Shown: positions 36,557-63,783 of the stretch, piece by piece
How positions within the stretch are numbered: the stretch's first letter is position 1
Layout: every line of letters begins with the position of its first letter
NCBI RefSeq assembly: GCF_000622245.1
Contig: NZ_KK211416.1
Span: forward strand, 168,296-232,295
Length of the DNA: 64,000 bases
Reading direction: 5' to 3'
Source of the DNA: Fusobacterium perfoetens ATCC 29250
GTDB taxonomy: Bacteria; Fusobacteriota; Fusobacteriia; Fusobacteriales; Fusobacteriaceae
Program-made: the position numbers and the translations under genes
Notes under the pieces: model-generated
What the model was told of the DNA's origin: nothing
What the model saw: only the letters and a program-made list of their open reading frames with translations
Database searches by the model: none

Positions 36557-36635
36557 TAAAAAAAATATATATCAGATATATATAATTTATATTATACAAA
36601 TTAATAAATTTTAGATATACTTTTATTTAAAAGAA

Positions 36636-36806
36636 TTTAAGATAGAGGAGCAAATGATAAGAGTAAAATTATTTTAGTCTGACAAACGGAGAATAATTTG
36701 AAAGGAGATTTTGCCGAAATAGAAGTGAAGGTCAAAACATTTTTATTGGTAAATTAGATAATATCTATTTTACTGTCATTGAGTTTTCAATGGAGGGCTA
36801 TCAAGT
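36636..36806 (+). ncRNA. Lysine riboswitch (L box)
   Basis: The lysine-aptamer landmarks appear in order: GATAGAGGAGC (36641 on), AAGAGTA, GAAAGGAGATTTTGCCGAAA, a TACTGTCATT segment, and TGGAGGGCTATC (36791-36802), whose CTATC closes P1 with GATAG (36641-36645). A terminator follows at 36848-36883 and lysA begins at 36907, so lysine should switch lysA off by termination. Confidence 0.93.
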
Positions 36807-36847
36807 AAGTTATCTAAAATATAATTATTATTTTTATATAGGTTACT

Positions 36848-43895: not shown

Positions 43896-43980
43896 CATTT
43901 ATAACAAAGTATACAAATAAATAAAGAATATAATAAATATAAAATTTATTTAATGATTTATAAATTATGTACTTTGTAAT

Positions 43981-44082
43981 CTTCTTCCATCCAGACTATA
44001 CTGTCGGTCTTGGAATTTCACCAAGTCAGTGATAACACTCGCGGACTTTACCGCCGATCGGGAATTTCACCCTGCCCTGAAG
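43981..44082 (-). ncRNA. FMN riboswitch (RFN element)
   Basis: On the minus strand the hallmark blocks appear in order: CTTCAGGGCAGGGTGAAATT, CCCGATCGGCGGTAAAGTCC, GCGAG, GGTGAAATTCC, ACCGACAGTATAGTC and GGATGGAAGAAG. The outer CTTC/GAAG pair closes P1. FMN binding should favour the terminator at 43872-43895 and shut off ribH-ribD-ribE-ribBA. Confidence 0.97.
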
Positions 44083-44117
44083 TTTTACAATTTTAATTTA
44101 GTTTTATATCTAACTAA

Positions 44118-46375: not shown

Positions 46376-46384
46376 TGGTATAAT
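46376..46384 (+). promoter_or_regulatory. Extended -10 promoter of the first accessory cluster
   Basis: TGGTATAAT, an extended -10. The second cluster has TGGTACAAT at the matching place (59346-59354). No clear -35 here. Confidence 0.6.
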
Positions 46385-46437: not shown

Positions 46438-46504
46438 GAGGTGATGCTTATGAGAAATTATTTTTTAGAAATTAAAAGATAATTTTGTCATGAGCATTTT
46501 TTTT
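46438..46504 (+). promoter_or_regulatory. Shared leader element, copy A: mini-ORF inside a terminator hairpin
   Basis: GAGGTGATGCTTATG is a ribosome binding site with a start codon. Its ATGCTTATGA (46444-46453) pairs with TCATGAGCAT (46488-46497); inner AAATTAT and ATAATTT extend the stem, and eight T follow, so it is an intrinsic terminator. The enclosed ORF (46450-46482) reads MRNYFLEIKR. Copy B at 59392-59455 is nearly identical outside the loop. A ribosome on this site would prevent the hairpin, so it may be a translation-dependent attenuator. Confidence 0.75.
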
Positions 46505-46536: not shown

Positions 46537-47010
46537 ATGTTAAAGATAGTCGGAATAATACTTATAATTGTAGGAACTTTTAACCTTTTTCAATATAAAA
46601 AAGCTACAGAGAGAAATTTTTATGTAAATGGAACTCTTATTGATTATAGTTATTCTCCATCTGTAAATAGATATTTTCCTGTATTTAGATATACAGTGGA
46701 TGGAGTAATTTATGAGGAAGAATATAGAGGAGTTTACAAAAGTGAAGAAAAAATAGAAAAATTAAAAAATATAAATATTGATGAAATGCCAAAAGCAACT
46801 AAAAAAATTATAAAAAAATTAAAAGATGTTAATTATATAGAATATGAAATTGGAAAAGAATATAAATTATTAGTGAATAAAAATAACCCTAAAGAATATT
46901 GGATAGCAGAAGATGGGACTAATAAAGGAAGAGAATATATTTGGATAGGGATAGGAATTATGTTTTTAATGGCATCTTTTATTTTAAAACTTATTAAATT
47001 AAAATTTTAG
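46537..47010 (+). CDS. DUF3592-like membrane protein
   Basis: 157 aa. Membrane helices at 1-18 and about 134-155 flank a beta-rich extracytoplasmic domain with YSPSVNRYFPVFRYTVDGVIYEEEYRG and a later YKLLVNKNNPKEYWI, the pattern of DUF3592, where the protein usually has an exposed beta domain between two helices. Function unknown. First gene after leader element A; GAGAGGG ribosome binding site. It opens a cluster with a YwqK-like protein. Confidence 0.72.
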   Translation: MLKIVGIILIIVGTFNLFQYKKATERNFYVNGTLIDYSYSPSVNRYFPVFRYTVDGVIYEEEYRGVYKSEEKIEKLKNINIDEMPKATKKIIKKLKDVNYIEYEIGKEYKLLVNKNNPKEYWIAEDGTNKGREYIWIGIGIMFLMASFILKLIKLKF

Positions 47011-47036: not shown

Positions 47037-47258
47037 TTGATAAAGATATATCAATTATATACAATAGATAATTTAAGAATAATAATAGAAATACAAAAGA
47101 CGGATTTATATGATACAGTAACAAAATATAATGAAAATATTAAAATGTTTCCAGGAAATATAATAGCTAACTTTTTTAATTTTAGTGAAGAAAAGTTTTT
47201 TAAAGCTGATGAAAAAGCAAGTAATAATATAAATATTGATTTTTATGGAGGTAAATAA
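47037..47258 (+). CDS. Small hypothetical protein
   Basis: 73 aa from a TTG start with AAAAAGG about 10 nt upstream; the start is weak and a later one is possible. No membrane segment or known motif: mixed polar sequence with GNIIANFFNFSEEKFFKADEKAS. Its stop overlaps the next ATG by one base (TAATG), which supports it as a real, translationally coupled gene. Confidence 0.5.
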   Translation: MIKIYQLYTIDNLRIIIEIQKTDLYDTVTKYNENIKMFPGNIIANFFNFSEEKFFKADEKASNNINIDFYGGK

Positions 47259-48703
47259 TGAAAGTAAAAATAGTTTTAAGTGTGATAACTATATTAGGAA
47301 TAGCAGTTGGAACATATATTTATCAAAATAAATATTCTTTTTATAGATATTTACCTGCTGAAGATGAGTCTAAACTTCAAAGTATCAATTTTAAATGGTG
47401 TGATGAAGATGGTAAAGCATTTAGTGGAAGAATTAAAAATGGAAGTGATTCTTACTTAAATATCTACTCTTACAAAGATGGAGAATTGGATGGATTAAAT
47501 GTAATATATTATAAAAATAAAATAAAAGAGATAGGTCATTGGAAAGAAGGAAAACAAAATGGACTTTTTCAAATGTATACAGAAGATGGAATCTTAGTTG
47601 ATAATGCTAATTTTAAAAATGGAGAAAGAGATGGTCTTACAGAACAATATTATAGTGCTACAGGAAAATTAAGGATAGCAGCAAACTTTAAAAATGGAGT
47701 ACTTGATGGAAAATATAAGGCTTATTATCCTAGTGGAGCTTTACAAGGAGAAGTATTTTATACAAATGGAGAGATGAATGGAGAAATTAAAGAGTATTAT
47801 GAAAATGGAAATTTAAGGCTTGTTGGGAATTATAAAAAAAGTTTAGAAAATGGAGAGTGGAAATTTTATTTGGAAAAAGGTAATTTACAATCAATAGTAA
47901 ATTATAAAGATGGAGAAATGAATGGATTAAAAGAAGATTATTATGATAATGGAAAAGTTTGGACAAGAAGTGAATTTAAAAATAATATTCAAGAAGGAAT
48001 TTATGAAGTTTATTATAAAGATGGAACTCCTCAATTAAAAGCTAAAATAAAAGGAGGGAAAATTATAGAGGAACAAAGATTTAATAGAGATGGAACAATT
48101 TATGATGAAAATGATGATAAGGTATTTGTAAGTGAAACTGTTGTTGGTGCTTTTGAGGAAAGTAATATCACAGAGAATGAGGAAGAAATAACTATAAAGG
48201 AAGTTGATGATAAGGGAAATATAATATCAGAATCTCAAAATAATAAAAAAGAAACAGAAAAATTAGAAGAGGGAAATGATGAGATAGAACTTTTAGGGGA
48301 AACAATAGGAAATGCTTTTAATTCTATGGTTGAAACTTTAATAATTTCTAATCTTGTCTATATAGACCTTATGAGTTTTGAAAAAATAGAAATATCTGAA
48401 GAAAAATTAAAAATAAATGATAAGGATGAAATTCCTTATAAAAGAAATTATAAAAATGGAGTATATGGAGTTAATATTCCTATTGAAAATAATAATTATT
48501 TGTGGGTTCAGTTAAAAGAAAATAAAAGTGGGGAACATAAATTATTTTTTGAAGAATATAAAAAATTTAGAGAAAATAATGAAAAGGAAATTAGAAAGTA
48601 TCTTGAAGAATTAGTTTATCCTATAATAGATGATTTTTATAAAGTGGAAGGAAAGGAGGCTAAATTTTTTGATATAACTATTTCTATAAAAAATTACTCT
48701 TAA
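47258..48703 (+). CDS. YwqK-like MORN-repeat protein
   Basis: 481 aa. An N-terminal signal anchor (residues 4-22) is followed by about nine MORN_2 repeats (residues 60-275; for example EYYENGNLRLVGNYKK and VYYKDGTPQLKAKIK) of roughly 22 aa. The C-terminal 200 residues are acidic and unassigned. YwqK-family proteins are annotated near polymorphic toxins as immunity or antitoxin-like partners, but no toxin is visible here. Ribosome binding site GGAGGT. Probably exposed outside the inner membrane. Confidence 0.8.
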   Translation: MKVKIVLSVITILGIAVGTYIYQNKYSFYRYLPAEDESKLQSINFKWCDEDGKAFSGRIKNGSDSYLNIYSYKDGELDGLNVIYYKNKIKEIGHWKEGKQNGLFQMYTEDGILVDNANFKNGERDGLTEQYYSATGKLRIAANFKNGVLDGKYKAYYPSGALQGEVFYTNGEMNGEIKEYYENGNLRLVGNYKKSLENGEWKFYLEKGNLQSIVNYKDGEMNGLKEDYYDNGKVWTRSEFKNNIQEGIYEVYYKDGTPQLKAKIKGGKIIEEQRFNRDGTIYDENDDKVFVSETVVGAFEESNITENEEEITIKEVDDKGNIISESQNNKKETEKLEEGNDEIELLGETIGNAFNSMVETLIISNLVYIDLMSFEKIEISEEKLKINDKDEIPYKRNYKNGVYGVNIPIENNNYLWVQLKENKSGEHKLFFEEYKKFRENNEKEIRKYLEELVYPIIDDFYKVEGKEAKFFDITISIKNYS

Positions 48704-48725
48704 AATAATTTTGGAGGGGATATTG

Positions 48726-49409
48726 ATGAAAAAAATATTAATATTTGTAGGCTATTTATTACTAATTATTTCTTTGAATTTATATGGGAAAGATATGGAG
48801 GTAGAAAATAAAATGGAAAAAGATATTGATTTTGGATTAACTATTAATAACAAATATTTTCCTGTTCCAATTACTTTAGAGAAACTTATTAAAGATGGTT
48901 GGAAAATAAGTGATGAAACACCATATTTTTTAAATCCATTAGTTGGGGAAGATTATTATGAAGTAAGAAAAGATTGGTCATTATCAGAAGATAAAAAAAG
49001 CATTATTAAAGGAGGAAAAATTATTAGACTTCTAGAAAAAGATGGAATATTTTTAGAAGTAACTATAACAAATCAGAATATTTCTGAAAATGATGAGCAA
49101 TATCAAAAAATTGAAGAAGGGGTAGTTAATTCTATTTTAGTTTTTTACAATAAAATGATTAATAGTATAAAATTGAATAATAGAGAATTAAGAGATTTAA
49201 CACCAGATATTTTAATAAAAGATTATTCTTTAAATGATGGTTGGCAACATATTCCAACAAATTATAGAAATCACCCAGAATTTGGAATTTCAACAGAATA
49301 TACTATAGATAATAATAAAAGAAGTGTTAGTATATATTTTGATTTAGAAAATAAACCATTTAAAGTAGAAATATTAAATGAAACACCTCTAAAAAATATA
49401 GAAAACTAA
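48726..49409 (+). CDS. Secreted protein, unknown function
   Basis: About 227 aa from ATG 48726, behind GGAGGGG. Signal peptide MKKILIFVGYLLLIISLNLYG. The mature part contains FGLTINNKYFPVPITLEKLIKDGWKI and GGKIIRLLEKDGIFLEVTI, a mixed alpha/beta pattern seen in exported hypothetical proteins of Firmicutes and Fusobacteria. Last gene of the first accessory cluster; a strong terminator follows. Confidence 0.7.
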   Translation: MKKILIFVGYLLLIISLNLYGKDMEVENKMEKDIDFGLTINNKYFPVPITLEKLIKDGWKISDETPYFLNPLVGEDYYEVRKDWSLSEDKKSIIKGGKIIRLLEKDGIFLEVTITNQNISENDEQYQKIEEGVVNSILVFYNKMINSIKLNNRELRDLTPDILIKDYSLNDGWQHIPTNYRNHPEFGISTEYTIDNNKRSVSIYFDLENKPFKVEILNETPLKNIEN

Positions 49410-58816: not shown

Positions 58817-59317
58817 ATGAACTTTGGAAATAAAATACAAATTCAACGAAAAAGAAAAGGAATAACTCAGGAAGAATTGGGAGAAAAATTAAATGTTTCT
58901 AGACAAACAATTACAAAATGGGAATCTAATAAATCTTTTCCTGAGATAGAAAAGATAATAAAACTTAGTTATTATTTTAATGTAACAATAGACTATTTAT
59001 TAAAAGATGAGATAGAAAATTATGAAGAGAATTTTTGTGAAATAGTAGAAAAAATAGAAGATAGAAAAATAATACCTAAAACAATCAAAGTTTTTTTATT
59101 TTTATTAGTTATTAGCTTCATAGGAATAATGTATTTTTATGTCGATTCATTTATTCATCCAGTTACAATAACTGATTGGGATGGAACTTATTATAAAGGT
59201 TTTTATGGATATCTTCATATTCATAATATAGAATATATTTTATATAGTTTGATTATATTATTTATCATTAGTTTAGGATATATTATAATTTATTCTCTAA
59301 AAACACAACAAAAATAA
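58817..59317 (+). CDS. XRE-family HTH membrane-anchored regulator
   Basis: 166 aa. Residues 1-60 are a Cro/CI-type HTH (RKRKGITQEELGEKLNVSRQTITKWE). A linker leads to two membrane helices (about 94-114 and 139-160) around a short extracytoplasmic loop rich in His, Tyr and Asp (TDWDGTYYKGFYGYLHIHN). HTH proteins with short membrane tails are common near small accessory clusters. It starts the second accessory region with a strong AAAGGAGG. It may sense an envelope signal or bind a membrane partner. Confidence 0.82.
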   Translation: MNFGNKIQIQRKRKGITQEELGEKLNVSRQTITKWESNKSFPEIEKIIKLSYYFNVTIDYLLKDEIENYEENFCEIVEKIEDRKIIPKTIKVFLFLLVISFIGIMYFYVDSFIHPVTITDWDGTYYKGFYGYLHIHNIEYILYSLIILFIISLGYIIIYSLKTQQK

Positions 59318-59323
59318 AACATC

Positions 59324-59354
59324 TTGTCAAAAAAAAAAAAAAAAGTGGTACAAT
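59324..59354 (+). promoter_or_regulatory. Promoter with a poly-A spacer, likely phase variable
   Basis: TTGTCA (59324-59329) and TACAAT (59349-59354, extended by TGG at 59346) are 19 bp apart. A run of 16 A (59329-59344) fills the spacer. Length changes in this run would alter the -35/-10 distance and thus transcription of the Imm17-like cluster. Confidence 0.65.
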
Positions 59355-59391: not shown

Positions 59392-59455
59392 GAGGTGATG
59401 CTTATGAAAATTATTTTTTGTAAACAAAGGATAATTTTGTCATGAGCATTTTTTT
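59392..59455 (+). promoter_or_regulatory. Shared leader element, copy B: mini-ORF inside a terminator hairpin
   Basis: Same design as copy A (46438-46504). The ribosome binding site GAGGTGATG and ATGCTTATGA (59398-59407) pair with TCATGAGCAT (59440-59449); inner AAAATTAT pairs with ATAATTTT, and seven T follow. The mini-ORF 59404-59445 reads MKIIFCKQRIILS, different from copy A because of a 2-nt indel, so the RNA structure rather than the peptide is conserved. Confidence 0.75.
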
Positions 59456-59484: not shown

Positions 59485-59757
59485 ATGAATAATCCTATTA
59501 GTGATTTATATGTAAAATTTATGGAAACCATAGAACCCTATATAAAGAAATATCCCTATCTTTTTGGAATAATTATCGGAGGAATATTTTTCTTCGGAGC
59601 TATTTTTAAATGGAGCTGGATTTGTGACCCTACAGGCTCAAAAAGATTTATGAGAACTGTTTATGAAATCTTTGGAGAAGGTGGATTTAGATTTTTTACA
59701 GGACTATTTGGGGCAATAATAATTATTATTTGTATATTTGAATGGATAAAAAAATAA
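59485..59757 (+). CDS. Imm17-like small membrane protein
   Basis: 90 aa. Two hydrophobic helices (about 23-43 and 70-88) surround a loop with FKWSWICDPTGSKRFMRTVYEIFGEGGFRFFTG. The W-D-P-x-G and F-G-x-x-G-x-R pattern resembles the immunity protein 17 family, small inner-membrane proteins annotated as immunity to polymorphic toxins. First gene after leader element B; ribosome binding site AAAGGAG. No cognate toxin is visible upstream. Confidence 0.65.
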   Translation: MNNPISDLYVKFMETIEPYIKKYPYLFGIIIGGIFFFGAIFKWSWICDPTGSKRFMRTVYEIFGEGGFRFFTGLFGAIIIIICIFEWIKK

Positions 59758-59776: not shown

Positions 59777-61234
59777 ATGGAAGTTAAAGTTGGGGATATT
59801 TATACTACTTATCATAAAAAATTAGGTTGTTATATAGCTTGTCAAATTACTGATATTTCTGAAAAAACTATTACTAAGCTAGAATTAAATTGGACAGGAA
59901 CAGAACCTTTAAATAAAAATCAATTAAAAAATCTTCAACCATTGTACAAAGATTTTATGTATTGGGAAAAATCTCTTTGCTTGATTAATGTAGAAAAAGA
60001 AATACCAGAGGAATTACAATATGTAGGAAATATTTCTCCAATTATTACTAAAAAAAGTAATACATATGGAACTTGGAATAATAGTGATGATATTTATTAT
60101 CAATTAAAATGGCAAAAAATACCAGAAGAAAAAAGAATAGCCTTTAAAAAAGCTATGGAAAGTGAAGATGAAATAGATATAGATGGATATTCTATAAAAT
60201 TAGGTAGTCATAGAATAATGGATAAATATACTCCTTTTGATTCTACATTAGAATTATTAAAGTTACCATGTCTTTCTGAGATTATTTGTGAGAAATGGCA
60301 TAATGATTTATTAGAATTTTTAAAAGAATCTCCTTTTATATATGAACTTACTTTAATTAATCATAATCAAAAAAAACTAGATTTTAGAGGAACAAGTATT
60401 AGTAAGTTAATGCTTGATATGAAAGGATTAGAAGAATTATGGTTAGGAGAAGAGGTAGAACAACTGTTATTTCAAAATGAAGAATTGGATAATTGTGTAA
60501 TTCATGCTCCTAATAATGGAGAAGAGTTGATGATACAATTTATTGGCAATTATCAATCACATAAAGAATTATCAAATCTTAAAACTCTTCATGGAATTAA
60601 TATAAAAAGTTTTGATATGATTGAACTTCCTGATATTCATTCTCATCTAAAAGAACTAAGATTGTGGGGAAAGCCAGGAAATATTAAAAATTTTTCTTCT
60701 TTAAAAGAATTTAAGGAATTAGAAATATTTTCTACATATGATTTATTTGGATTTACTAAAGAAGATATTCCAACTCCAGAAGAATTACCTAAGCTTAATT
60801 GGCTTTGGCTAACTAGTTTTCCAGAAGAAGTAGCTAAAACAGTAAAAAACCTTTGGAAAAAAAATCCTAGAATAAGTTTACGAATTACAAAACCTCGTAA
60901 ATCAGAATGGTTAGCACAAAATTTAGATAATCCTTTTAGAGCTTGGGACGGAGCAGAACATATTCCTGTATCTTCAGCTAAAAAAGCAGTAGAGCAATAT
61001 CGTAAAACACGTTCAGCATTATTAAAAATAGCTAATGATACAGAAGAAGAAAGAGAGAAAAAAGCTTTAGAAATAGTAACTAATTATACTCAAACATTTA
61101 ATAAGATGAGATTTATAGAAACAGAAGAAAGAGATGAAATTTATACAGCTTTATGTAATATTTTAGATATTTTACCAGATAATATTAATAAAGATAAATT
61201 ATTAGATAGATTTGAGGAATTAAGAGATTTTTAG
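59777..61234 (+). CDS. Large protein with leucine-rich-like middle, accessory cluster
   Basis: 485 aa, family not recognised. Residues 1-90 form a beta-rich module starting VKVGDIYTTYHKKLGCYIACQI. Residues 160-360 show irregular leucine-rich spacing (LKELRLWGKPGNIKNFSSLKEFKELEIF). Residues 385-485 are helical and charged. No signal peptide, so probably cytoplasmic. It sits between an Imm17-like gene and a zinc-ribbon protein and may be an immunity or accessory protein. Ribosome binding site AGAGAGG. Confidence 0.7.
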   Translation: MEVKVGDIYTTYHKKLGCYIACQITDISEKTITKLELNWTGTEPLNKNQLKNLQPLYKDFMYWEKSLCLINVEKEIPEELQYVGNISPIITKKSNTYGTWNNSDDIYYQLKWQKIPEEKRIAFKKAMESEDEIDIDGYSIKLGSHRIMDKYTPFDSTLELLKLPCLSEIICEKWHNDLLEFLKESPFIYELTLINHNQKKLDFRGTSISKLMLDMKGLEELWLGEEVEQLLFQNEELDNCVIHAPNNGEELMIQFIGNYQSHKELSNLKTLHGINIKSFDMIELPDIHSHLKELRLWGKPGNIKNFSSLKEFKELEIFSTYDLFGFTKEDIPTPEELPKLNWLWLTSFPEEVAKTVKNLWKKNPRISLRITKPRKSEWLAQNLDNPFRAWDGAEHIPVSSAKKAVEQYRKTRSALLKIANDTEEEREKKALEIVTNYTQTFNKMRFIETEERDEIYTALCNILDILPDNINKDKLLDRFEELRDF

Positions 61235-61250
61235 TCTATAGGAGGTAGTT

Positions 61251-62354
61251 ATGAGTTTAAAATATAAATGCCCAGAATGTGGAACACCTTTAGGATTTGA
61301 AGGACTTTGTTGGAGATGTAGAAAAAGAAAGCACAGAGAGGAAGTCAATAGTTGGACAGAAGATGAGATACAGAAAAAAATAAATCAAGTAATAGAAAGA
61401 TTAAAAACTTCAACAGAAGATGAGTTTTATCAAACAGATGAATGTGATATATTTCAAGATTTAATGACTAGAGGAGCAGATATAAAAGAGATTTCTAAAG
61501 TAGCTTGTGAAAGAGAGATTTACTATCCAAGTGAACTATATTATAAAGCTAGTGAAGAGGTTAGAGATATAATAATAGAAAAAATTATGAGTACAAAATC
61601 TGCTGATGATGGTGGAAGATTTTTACAATGTCTTGCCATGATTGGAGATAAAAAATCTCAAGATACTCTATATGAACTCAAAATAAACCCTAGACCTTGG
61701 AGAAAAAAATTATATGTAGATTCAGATATATATGCTGAAGAGGGTGGTTGGACTTTTGATAGTAAAAATAACTATATAAAGCTTAACTATGATAGATGTT
61801 TCTCTTTTGATATAGGAGAGAAAAAAGATGAAAATGGAACTTTTATAGCTAGAAAAAGAGGAGAAAAATGTCCTCATTGTGGTGGAGAGATGATAGATAT
61901 TCTAGTAATAGATGGAAGAGATGAGAGATTTTCATTTTTAGGATTAGATGGAATAATTACAGTAAGTTGTTGTCCTAATTGTGTAACTTTAACTGAAGGA
62001 ATATCTACTAAATTTAATCTTGATGGAACAAGTGAAGTTTTAGATTATGAGGGAGAAGAAGAGAATTATTTTAGTGAAAATATAATAGATGAAATGGTAA
62101 ATAATAAATTTGTTGTTTCAGTTAAAGAAAAACCTTTATTTTATGGTGCTTTTGGAGATGATGTAAGCACTATAGGTGGATTTGCTAGTTGGGTACAAGA
62201 TTGGGAATATAGGGAGTGTCCAGAGTGTGGAAAGAAAATGAAATACCTTGCTCAAATTCATTGGGACACTATAATGGATTCAGCAGAGGGAACTTTGTAT
62301 ATAGAAATTTGTCCAGATTGTAAAATTGTAACAGCTTTTCATCAACAAACTTAA
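61251..62354 (+). CDS. Zinc-ribbon protein, accessory cluster
   Basis: 367 aa. Three Cys clusters: CPECGTPLGFEGLCWRC (about 6-22), CPHCGGEM with a distant CCPNC, and near the C-terminus CPECGKKMKYLAQIHWD with CPDC. The last part (FASWVQDWEYRECPECGKKM, then an acidic C-terminus) resembles the end of DUF1963/YwqG-like proteins. Residues 25-140 read as HEAT-like helices. Cytoplasmic. Function unknown; its company suggests immunity or toxin-neutralising roles. Ribosome binding site AGGAGGT. Confidence 0.72.
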   Translation: MSLKYKCPECGTPLGFEGLCWRCRKRKHREEVNSWTEDEIQKKINQVIERLKTSTEDEFYQTDECDIFQDLMTRGADIKEISKVACEREIYYPSELYYKASEEVRDIIIEKIMSTKSADDGGRFLQCLAMIGDKKSQDTLYELKINPRPWRKKLYVDSDIYAEEGGWTFDSKNNYIKLNYDRCFSFDIGEKKDENGTFIARKRGEKCPHCGGEMIDILVIDGRDERFSFLGLDGIITVSCCPNCVTLTEGISTKFNLDGTSEVLDYEGEEENYFSENIIDEMVNNKFVVSVKEKPLFYGAFGDDVSTIGGFASWVQDWEYRECPECGKKMKYLAQIHWDTIMDSAEGTLYIEICPDCKIVTAFHQQT

Positions 62355-62373
62355 TTAAAAGTAAGTGATAAAA

Positions 62374-62556
62374 ATGAAAAATTTTGATATAGTTGCCTTT
62401 ATATGTGTTGTAATTGTTGTTTATATGATAATAGGTTCTACAATATTTATCTTAAAACAACTTAAATATAATTTAAAATTTACAATAGTAATATTTATTT
62501 CTGTGATAATAGGATTGGGATTAATTTGTCTTTATAATTACTTTAAAAATTTTTAA
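62374..62556 (+). CDS. Small membrane protein
   Basis: About 60 aa from ATG 62374 (a GTG nine bases upstream is in frame; the ribosome binding site AAGTGA is weak). Two membrane helices (about 5-27 and 36-55) and little else. Family unknown. It lies between the zinc-ribbon gene and the DUF1266 gene in one transcript. Confidence 0.6.
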   Translation: MKNFDIVAFICVVIVVYMIIGSTIFILKQLKYNLKFTIVIFISVIIGLGLICLYNYFKNF

Positions 62557-62571
62557 ACAGGAGGAATTTAT

Positions 62572-63783
62572 ATGTCAAATGAAATGAAAAAAGCTCAAGA
62601 AGAAATGGAAAAATTAATGAAGGAACATATGAAAGATGTCTATGGAGAAAATTTTGAAAATATGGGAGATTTAATGAAACAAGCTTTTGAAAATTCTTTA
62701 TCTAATTTAGAAAAAGAAATAGATATAGAAGCTATTCAAAATGTAGCTCCTGGTGTTGATATGGCAACTATATTACAAAAAACTCAAGAAGCTAAAGAAG
62801 AAGCTCTTAAAAGAGGAAATGATGCAATAGCCTCTCAATCTGAAGCTATAACAAAAGCTATGAATGAAATGTTTTCCTCAGGAAATACAGGACTTCAAGA
62901 TATGATATCAGAGCAAATGAAACAATTTCAAGCAATGACAGGAATAGAAGATTTTACAAAAATGACTCCAGAAGATATGCAAAATTATTATGAAAGTCAA
63001 ATGAATATGTGGAATGGATTGGAAAATGGAGAAGAGGAAGATGTATCTTTAGAGGGTGTTGGAAGTTTAATTGAAAATATGTATAATTCATTACCTGATG
63101 GAAATAAAATAAAAGTAAAAAATGGAGATGAATATATAGAAAAATTTGAAATTTTACTTTCTGGAATTTTATCTTATATAAATGGACATGAGAATGATAC
63201 TTTAGATGTAGAAGAACATGATGATTTCTTTAATGAAAAGATAAATTATATTCTTACAGAATTTTGGGGAATAGAAAGTAAAGAAGATGTATATGATACA
63301 ATAGGTTGGTTATTAAATGAAGGACATACAGATGAATATTTAAGTTATGTAAATGCTAATACTATTGACGAGTTAATAACAGAAGATATGGATGAAGAAG
63401 AAGTTGAAATTACAAAAAATGGATTTGAATTTGCAAAATATTTTAAAGATAAATTACCAGAAAATATTATGCTTGGTTGGGACTACGGAAGAGCTAGTGC
63501 AATAGTTCGTTGGGCATATTTTATGAATTATATTAACGAAGAGGAAGCTTGGGAAATTTTAGATAAAATAGCAGGAGTTATGATAGGTACATTTAATTCT
63601 TGGAAAGAGTTTGGAATATCTTACATTGTAGGTGGATTATTCTGGACTTATAGAAAAGACCCATCAGAAACATATAATCGTTATTATGAAACAGTAGAAG
63701 CTTTAGAGGGACTTTTAACTGAAACAGATGATGAGGATGATGGAGAGTGGTTGAGAAATCCTTGGATTGAAGAGGTGTTATAA
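62572..63783 (+). CDS. DUF1266-domain protein
   Basis: 403 aa. Residues 1-165 are a Met/Glu/Lys-rich helical region (EEMEKLMKEHMKD; repeated EAI/EAL heptads), and a middle part follows. Residues 300-370 are the DUF1266 domain, with LGWDYGRASAIVRWAYFMNY, NEEEAWEIL and FNSWKEFGISYIVGGLFW. DUF1266 proteins occur in toxin-immunity neighbourhoods but have no proven activity. Ribosome binding site AGGAGG; the stop overlaps the next ATG by one base. Confidence 0.85.
   Translation: MSNEMKKAQEEMEKLMKEHMKDVYGENFENMGDLMKQAFENSLSNLEKEIDIEAIQNVAPGVDMATILQKTQEAKEEALKRGNDAIASQSEAITKAMNEMFSSGNTGLQDMISEQMKQFQAMTGIEDFTKMTPEDMQNYYESQMNMWNGLENGEEEDVSLEGVGSLIENMYNSLPDGNKIKVKNGDEYIEKFEILLSGILSYINGHENDTLDVEEHDDFFNEKINYILTEFWGIESKEDVYDTIGWLLNEGHTDEYLSYVNANTIDELITEDMDEEEVEITKNGFEFAKYFKDKLPENIMLGWDYGRASAIVRWAYFMNYINEEEAWEILDKIAGVMIGTFNSWKEFGISYIVGGLFWTYRKDPSETYNRYYETVEALEGLLTETDDEDDGEWLRNPWIEEVL

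What the first reader, a model, noticed from the sequence alone, without database searches (positions are those of the whole stretch)
46438..46504. Leader element A: start codon and ribosome binding site inside a terminator arm
The same unit (GAGGTGATGCTTATGA, about 34-nt middle, TCATGAGCAT plus T run) occurs at 46438 and 59392, upstream of two unrelated accessory clusters and behind similar extended -10 sites. The peptides differ, but the arms and the ribosome binding site are conserved. Ribosome binding or stalling would melt the terminator, so downstream genes would be expressed only under certain translation states. To my knowledge no described attenuator class has this form.
Basis: partly seen in the sequence, partly recalled or inferred. 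Interest (0 to 1): 0.72.

Follow-up and report, generated by a model that had tools for sequence, protein, structure and literature searches.

The report
Ribosome-gated terminator before immunity genes
In some Fusobacteria, clusters of genes thought to protect against rival bacteria's toxins begin with a short conserved RNA hairpin that looks able to stop transcription unless a ribosome settles on the tiny start signal built into it; this is a new family of a regulatory trick known from a few other bacterial genes.

Summary
At 46438 and 59392 a Shine-Dalgarno site (GAGGTGAT) and an ATG lie in the 5' arm of a 24-25 bp hairpin that ends in a U run, 30-40 nt before the next gene. I found 24 copies: 4 in this genome and 20 in 8 related genomes, in two genera of the family and nowhere else among 98 Fusobacteriota genomes. 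The helix covaries (10 pairs with changes on both sides). The unpaired Shine-Dalgarno block is the best conserved part; its 5' flank is not conserved. Nineteen of 23 distinct copies keep the ATG. The peptides (mostly 2-15 codons) are not conserved. No conserved antiterminator exists.

The copies open, or lie inside, operons of immunity-type genes (Imm17, DUF3592-like, DUF4241 and others).

Best reading: an attenuator in which a ribosome on the mini-ORF melts the terminator directly. Whether transcription really terminates, and what the signal is, was not tested. The claim that no described attenuator has this form is too strong: E. coli ampC (AUG-UAA just before the terminator; growth-rate-dependent readthrough) and B. 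subtilis vmlR (variable 3-codon ORF, arrest at initiation) use the same principle. New variant of a known kind.

The parts
46376..46384 (+). extended -10 promoter-like site TGG-TATAAT, copy 1
   Evidence: read from the sequence; the consensus scan did not list it, so weak evidence
46438..46445 (+). Shine-Dalgarno GAGGTGAT at the foot of the hairpin, copy 1
   Evidence: most conserved block of the family, 2.24 bits per column
46450..46482 (+). mini-ORF MRNYFLEIKR, start codon in the 5' arm, copy 1
   Evidence: peptide not conserved between copies; translation not shown
46443..46504 (+). hairpin with U run (terminator-like), copy 1
   Evidence: fold z -7.0; covariation across 23 copies
46537..47010 (+). 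first gene of cluster 1, DUF3592-like membrane protein
   Evidence: DUF3592 below Pfam cut-off; preceded by the element in G002, G003, G005 and G029 too
47258..49409 (+). cluster 1 genes: MORN_2-repeat protein and an unknown protein
   Evidence: co-transcription inferred
59346..59354 (+). extended -10 promoter-like site TGG-TACAAT, copy 2 (TTGTCA at 59324-59329, 19 nt spacer)
   Evidence: read from the sequence
59392..59399 (+). Shine-Dalgarno GAGGTGAT, copy 2
59404..59445 (+). mini-ORF MKIIFCKQRIILS, copy 2
   Evidence: translation not shown
59397..59455 (+). hairpin with U run (terminator-like), copy 2
   Evidence: fold z -6.6; covariation
59485..59757 (+). Imm17 immunity protein, first gene of cluster 2
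   Evidence: Pfam PF15562 above cut-off; element also precedes Imm17 in G002, G005, G006, G029, G030 and G035
59777..63783 (+). further cluster 2 genes: unknown, zinc-ribbon-like, DUF1266; the array goes on beyond the window

Best explanation
A family of cis-acting transcription attenuators gated by ribosome occupancy. RNA polymerase makes a short unstructured leader, then a long hairpin with a U run that is expected to release it before the operon. A strong Shine-Dalgarno at the foot of the hairpin and a start codon in its 5' arm let a ribosome load on the nascent RNA; an initiating, translating or stalled ribosome covers the 5' arm, the hairpin cannot form, and transcription reads into the immunity-type genes. 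The peptide is irrelevant: occupancy is sensed, not a peptide or a codon. Shown here: anatomy, conservation, covariation, genomic placement, lack of a conserved alternative hairpin. Inferred: that termination occurs, that the mini-ORF is translated, that occupancy turns the operon on, and the physiological signal (many free ribosomes in fast growth, or ribosomes arrested by translation damage).
For: 24 copies in 9 genomes; 95.4% of cells paired, 10 of 21 pairs with changes on both sides, 0 of 500 shuffles as good, slid controls 45-58% paired; every copy folds with z -4.9 to -9.2. The Shine-Dalgarno block, mostly outside the helix, is the most conserved part (2.24 bits/column against 0.37 in the 5' flank) and 19 of 23 keep the ATG. 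Peptides vary from MT to 15 residues. No upstream segment pairs with the 5' arm better than shuffles. The next start codon follows within about 15-40 nt, too close for another promoter. Three orthologous leaders of sister genomes: 1 of 172 positions changed against 23 of 302 upstream, p 3e-4. Strong hairpins with Shine-Dalgarno plus ATG in the 5' arm were all family members in a 217 kb survey. Principle established for pyrBI (PMC5021804) and reported for ampC (PMC6045580).
Against: No expression data. Four of 23 copies (three independent cases) lack ATG at the usual position while keeping the Shine-Dalgarno and helix; an in-frame ATG or GTG six bases upstream remains in all but is very close to the Shine-Dalgarno. 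One mini-ORF has no stop and runs into Imm17. The simple terminator scan did not list the hairpins, because their loops or A+T-rich upper stems fall outside its rules. The organism's own 16S 3' end was not found, so the anti-Shine-Dalgarno match rests on general knowledge.
Confidence: 0.5

Rival explanations
1. Stall-induced sensor proper: in normal translation the ribosome clears the tiny ORF fast and the terminator forms; only ribosomes arrested at or near initiation (antibiotics, toxins that damage tRNA or rRNA) keep it open, so immunity genes are induced by translation damage.
For: vmlR precedent: a 3-codon uORF with variable codons, arrest at initiation, induction by translation defects. 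The ORFs are mostly 2 to 6 codons. Downstream genes are immunity-type, for which such induction would make sense.
Against: No conserved stall motif or codon; nothing shows that damage is the signal; shares all anatomy with the best explanation.
Confidence: 0.2
2. A terminator of fixed efficiency that sets polar expression of the array, with the Shine-Dalgarno and ATG serving only to insulate or re-recruit ribosomes.
For: Helix and U run are the constant parts; internal copies sit 8-43 nt after an upstream stop codon, where a partial terminator is plausible; some copies lack the ATG.
Against: Does not explain why an unpaired Shine-Dalgarno block is the most conserved segment.
Confidence: 0.15
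3. A trans-acting protein or small RNA binds GAGGUGAU at the hairpin foot and decides between termination and readthrough.
For: The block is kept in copies without ATG; regulon-like spread over unrelated operons.
Against: The block matches the general anti-Shine-Dalgarno complement and is followed at normal spacing by ATG in 19 of 23; the same string starts ordinary genes of this genome (L005, L006). No candidate factor found.
Confidence: 0.09
4. The hairpin is an RNA processing or stability element (for example an RNase III site) rather than a terminator.
For: Long near-perfect duplex of 25-30 pairs.
Against: A U run of 5-8 directly after the stem in every copy, and a position just before the first gene.
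Confidence: 0.06
5. A recombination or insertion site for immunity gene cassettes, or a mobile palindromic repeat.
For: Between sister genomes two of about a dozen gene-sized indels break exactly at an element edge.
Against: The other breakpoints are not at elements, so no clear enrichment; copies always point towards the downstream gene; absent from viral contigs.
Confidence: 0.03

Closest known systems
E. coli ampC attenuator (Jaurin et al. 1981, Nature 290:221; cited in PMC6045580)
   Same: Promoter, short leader, minimal ORF (AUG-UAA) at the terminator, gene just behind it (sequence read); readthrough reported to depend on growth rate; also doubles as terminator of the upstream operon, as copy 2 may for the gene ending at 59317
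   Different: AUG-UAA lies just before the stem, not inside the arm; Shine-Dalgarno weak to the eye; known to me as a single gene, not a multi-copy family; stem G+C-rich
B. subtilis vmlR leader (PMC9226507)
   Same: Single-stranded Shine-Dalgarno before a hairpin that holds a tiny ORF; codons may vary; arrest at initiation induces
   Different: The ORF sits in an anti-antiterminator; a separate antiterminator and terminator do the switching; induced by specific antibiotics
E. coli pyrBI attenuator (discussed in PMC5021804)
   Same: A ribosome close to RNA polymerase blocks the terminator hairpin directly
   Different: Long leader peptide; signal is nucleotide-dependent RNA polymerase speed (from memory)
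E. coli topAI uORF (PMC12121999)
   Same: A uORF that senses translation stress upstream of a conflict-type locus
   Different: A single locus in another phylum; passages read describe no terminator hairpin holding the start codon; Rho dependence is from memory

Membership tests
Intrinsic terminator | Stable hairpin followed directly by a U run | tested here: met
Intrinsic terminator | Transcription ends in the U run | not testable with these tools
   needs term-seq or in vitro transcription
ampC-type ribosome-occupancy attenuator | Minimal ORF with ribosome binding site overlapping or touching the terminator, between promoter and gene | tested here: met
   ampC itself read
ampC-type ribosome-occupancy attenuator | No alternative antiterminator needed | tested here: met
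   upstream pairing no better than shuffles in the 11 leaders tested
ampC-type ribosome-occupancy attenuator | Readthrough rises with growth rate or ribosome loading | not testable with these tools
   experiment needed
Stall-peptide or codon-specific leader attenuator (trp, erm type) | Conserved leader peptide or regulatory codons | tested here: not met
   peptides vary from MT to 15 residues
Stall-peptide or codon-specific leader attenuator (trp, erm type) | Mutually exclusive antiterminator hairpin | tested here: not met
   (only weak, unconserved pairings)
Known Rfam family (riboswitch, T-box, others) | Match at the family's gathering score | tested here: not met
Polyimmunity locus (for the downstream genes of cluster 2) | Array of diverse immunity-type genes with known Imm families | tested here: met
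   Imm17 over cut-off plus DUF5713, DUF4241, DUF1266; Imm17 listed for such loci
Polyimmunity locus (for cluster 1) | Array of diverse immunity-type genes with known Imm families | tested here: inconclusive
   only DUF3592-like and MORN_2; no named Imm family

The most novel reading that the evidence does not exclude
The element is a dedicated translation-damage alarm: when an incoming toxin cripples translation, ribosomes frozen on the mini-ORF hold the terminator open and switch on whole arrays of immunity genes, a common cis code shared by unrelated operons across species.
Probability: 0.17. Interest if true: 0.8.

Novelty: new variant of a known kind. Interest (0 to 1): 0.52.

Why it matters
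To my knowledge little is known about how immunity gene arrays are regulated. A shared, compact leader that reads ribosome occupancy would tie their expression to the state of translation, and would be a one-hairpin attenuator that can be tested in simple reporters. It also extends the ampC principle, known to me from a single gene, to a multi-copy covarying family that acts like a regulon.

Tried and rejected
Exact two-arm pattern in all genome contigs and viral contigs: nothing; a looser pattern in viral contigs: nothing. The genome-contig scan leaves out the window's own and near records, and its exact pattern would also miss diverged copies, so absence outside Fusobacteriota is only weakly shown. 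Imm17 alignment in genome contigs: only the Fusobacterium MAG already seen as G030; in viral contigs none. Weak model hits L054, L055, L056 and L063 lack the element on reading and do not recur with model R2; L098 (E 0.005) was not followed. L083 (G005:C19) looks like a decayed copy or an ordinary terminator after a gene and was left out. Antiterminator between upstream leader and 5' arm: rejected. Recombination-site idea: no clear enrichment. A first terminator survey timed out; a reduced one ran. The 16S 3' end was not found in the assembly.

Full report
What is there. Both units exist exactly as reported. Each has GAGGTGAT, four bases, ATG in the ascending arm, a 24-25 bp hairpin and a T run, 30-40 nt before the next gene. 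Folding gives -22.9 and -23.4 kcal/mol, z about -7. The combined pattern has a shuffle expectation of zero in the window.

More copies. A third exact copy and a fourth, diverged copy lie further along the same contig, at 242757 and 269453. A covariance model from three copies found the element in five of seven genomes of the genus and in a second genus of the family. A second model, from 23 distinct copies, found it in 9 of 98 Fusobacteriota genomes, all in those two genera. In total I count 24 copies in 9 genomes. One carrier is named: a Fusobacterium MAG whose 3,575-base contig corresponds to G030:C125 here. Rfam has no matching family.

Structure is selected. In the alignment of 23 copies, 95.4% of cells pair. 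Ten of 21 pairs show changes on both sides. None of 500 shuffles reaches these values, and sliding the partner by one to three columns drops pairing to 45-58%. The tool warns that relatedness can inflate such counts, but the upper stem differs strongly between families and stays paired in every copy. Between two sister genomes, three orthologous leaders differ at 1 of 172 positions, against 23 of 302 aligned positions just upstream.

The ribosome binding site is selected beyond the structure. The GAGGTG block lies mostly outside the helix. It carries 2.24 bits per column, more than any other part, while the 12 columns before it carry 0.37. ATG at the usual spacing is kept in 19 of 23. The exceptions are two orthologous copies with CCCAAAG and two with ATA. 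In all 23 an ATG or GTG six bases upstream stays in the same frame, though very close to the Shine-Dalgarno. Peptides range from MT (four copies) through six-residue forms such as MTLIVF to 15 residues; one ORF runs open into Imm17. A conserved peptide or codon is therefore unlikely to be what is sensed. In a survey of 217 kb, 179 terminator-like hairpins were found. Those more stable than -20 kcal/mol with a Shine-Dalgarno plus ATG in the 5' arm were all members of this family.

Placement. The distance from the U run to the next start codon is about 15-40 nt, too little for a promoter, so the next gene must be read through the element. The element stands at operon heads, with -10-like sites upstream, or at an internal junction, usually after a DUF5713 gene. 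It follows the transcription unit rather than a particular gene: in G035 it precedes a DUF2207-like gene and not the DUF3592-like gene deeper in the same contig, and in G024 the Imm17 and DUF3592-like genes sit directly behind other genes without it. The downstream genes are Imm17, DUF3592-like, DUF2207-like, DIP1984-like, SMI1-like/DUF4241-containing and unknown proteins (DUF2207, DIP1984 and SMI1 are my reading of the sequences, not profile matches). Imm17 is described as a member of heterogeneous polyimmunity loci (PMC3482391). The two genomes of the window's genus that lack the element also lack Imm17, the DUF3592-like gene and DUF5713.

Mechanism. The simplest account is direct competition. 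A ribosome that loads on the nascent Shine-Dalgarno covers the 5' arm, and the terminator cannot form. No upstream segment pairs with the arm better than chance, so the usual antiterminator scheme is not supported. What is not known is the signal in the cell: abundant free ribosomes, or ribosomes arrested near initiation. Both would open the gate. A fixed-efficiency terminator and a trans-acting factor remain possible, and the four copies without the usual ATG keep them alive.

Known relatives. The E. coli ampC leader carries AUG-UAA directly before its terminator, and antitermination is reported to depend on growth rate (PMC6045580, citing Jaurin et al. 1981; the original was not read, and the ribosome-binding explanation of it is from memory). 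In vmlR a three-codon ORF with variable codons senses arrest at initiation through alternative hairpins (PMC9226507). In pyrBI a coupled ribosome blocks the terminator (PMC5021804). The present element works most like ampC, with the start codon moved into the arm and the device multiplied over many operons. It is a new variant of a known kind. It is filed by anatomy only; the functional defining feature, readthrough that depends on ribosome loading, could not be tested.

Noticed in passing
L034, L042, L050, L060, L061, L062 and L073, upstream of the element: Head copies outside the window's genome share a -10 region with a near-palindrome, AGTATACTTATACT, across unrelated operons; it could be an operator or just promoter similarity.
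   Followed up: no
G000:C24:226000-278000 against G002:C1:180000-240000 (L064-L070): Two sister genomes about 96% identical differ by about a dozen gene-sized indels in the polyimmunity island; a 0.6 kb gene is inserted just 5' of one element and about 6 kb just 3' of another.
   Followed up: partly
window 58817-59317: An XRE-type HTH regulator gene ends 75 nt before copy 2, so the hairpin may also end its transcript, as the ampC attenuator does for frd.
   Followed up: no
L071:13996-14364 (-): In G005 the mini-ORF has no stop and is fused in frame to Imm17, giving a possible N-terminal extension.
   Followed up: no
window 43975-44088 (-) and 36635-36808 (+): FMN and lysine riboswitches, well above the Rfam thresholds; ordinary.
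   Followed up: no
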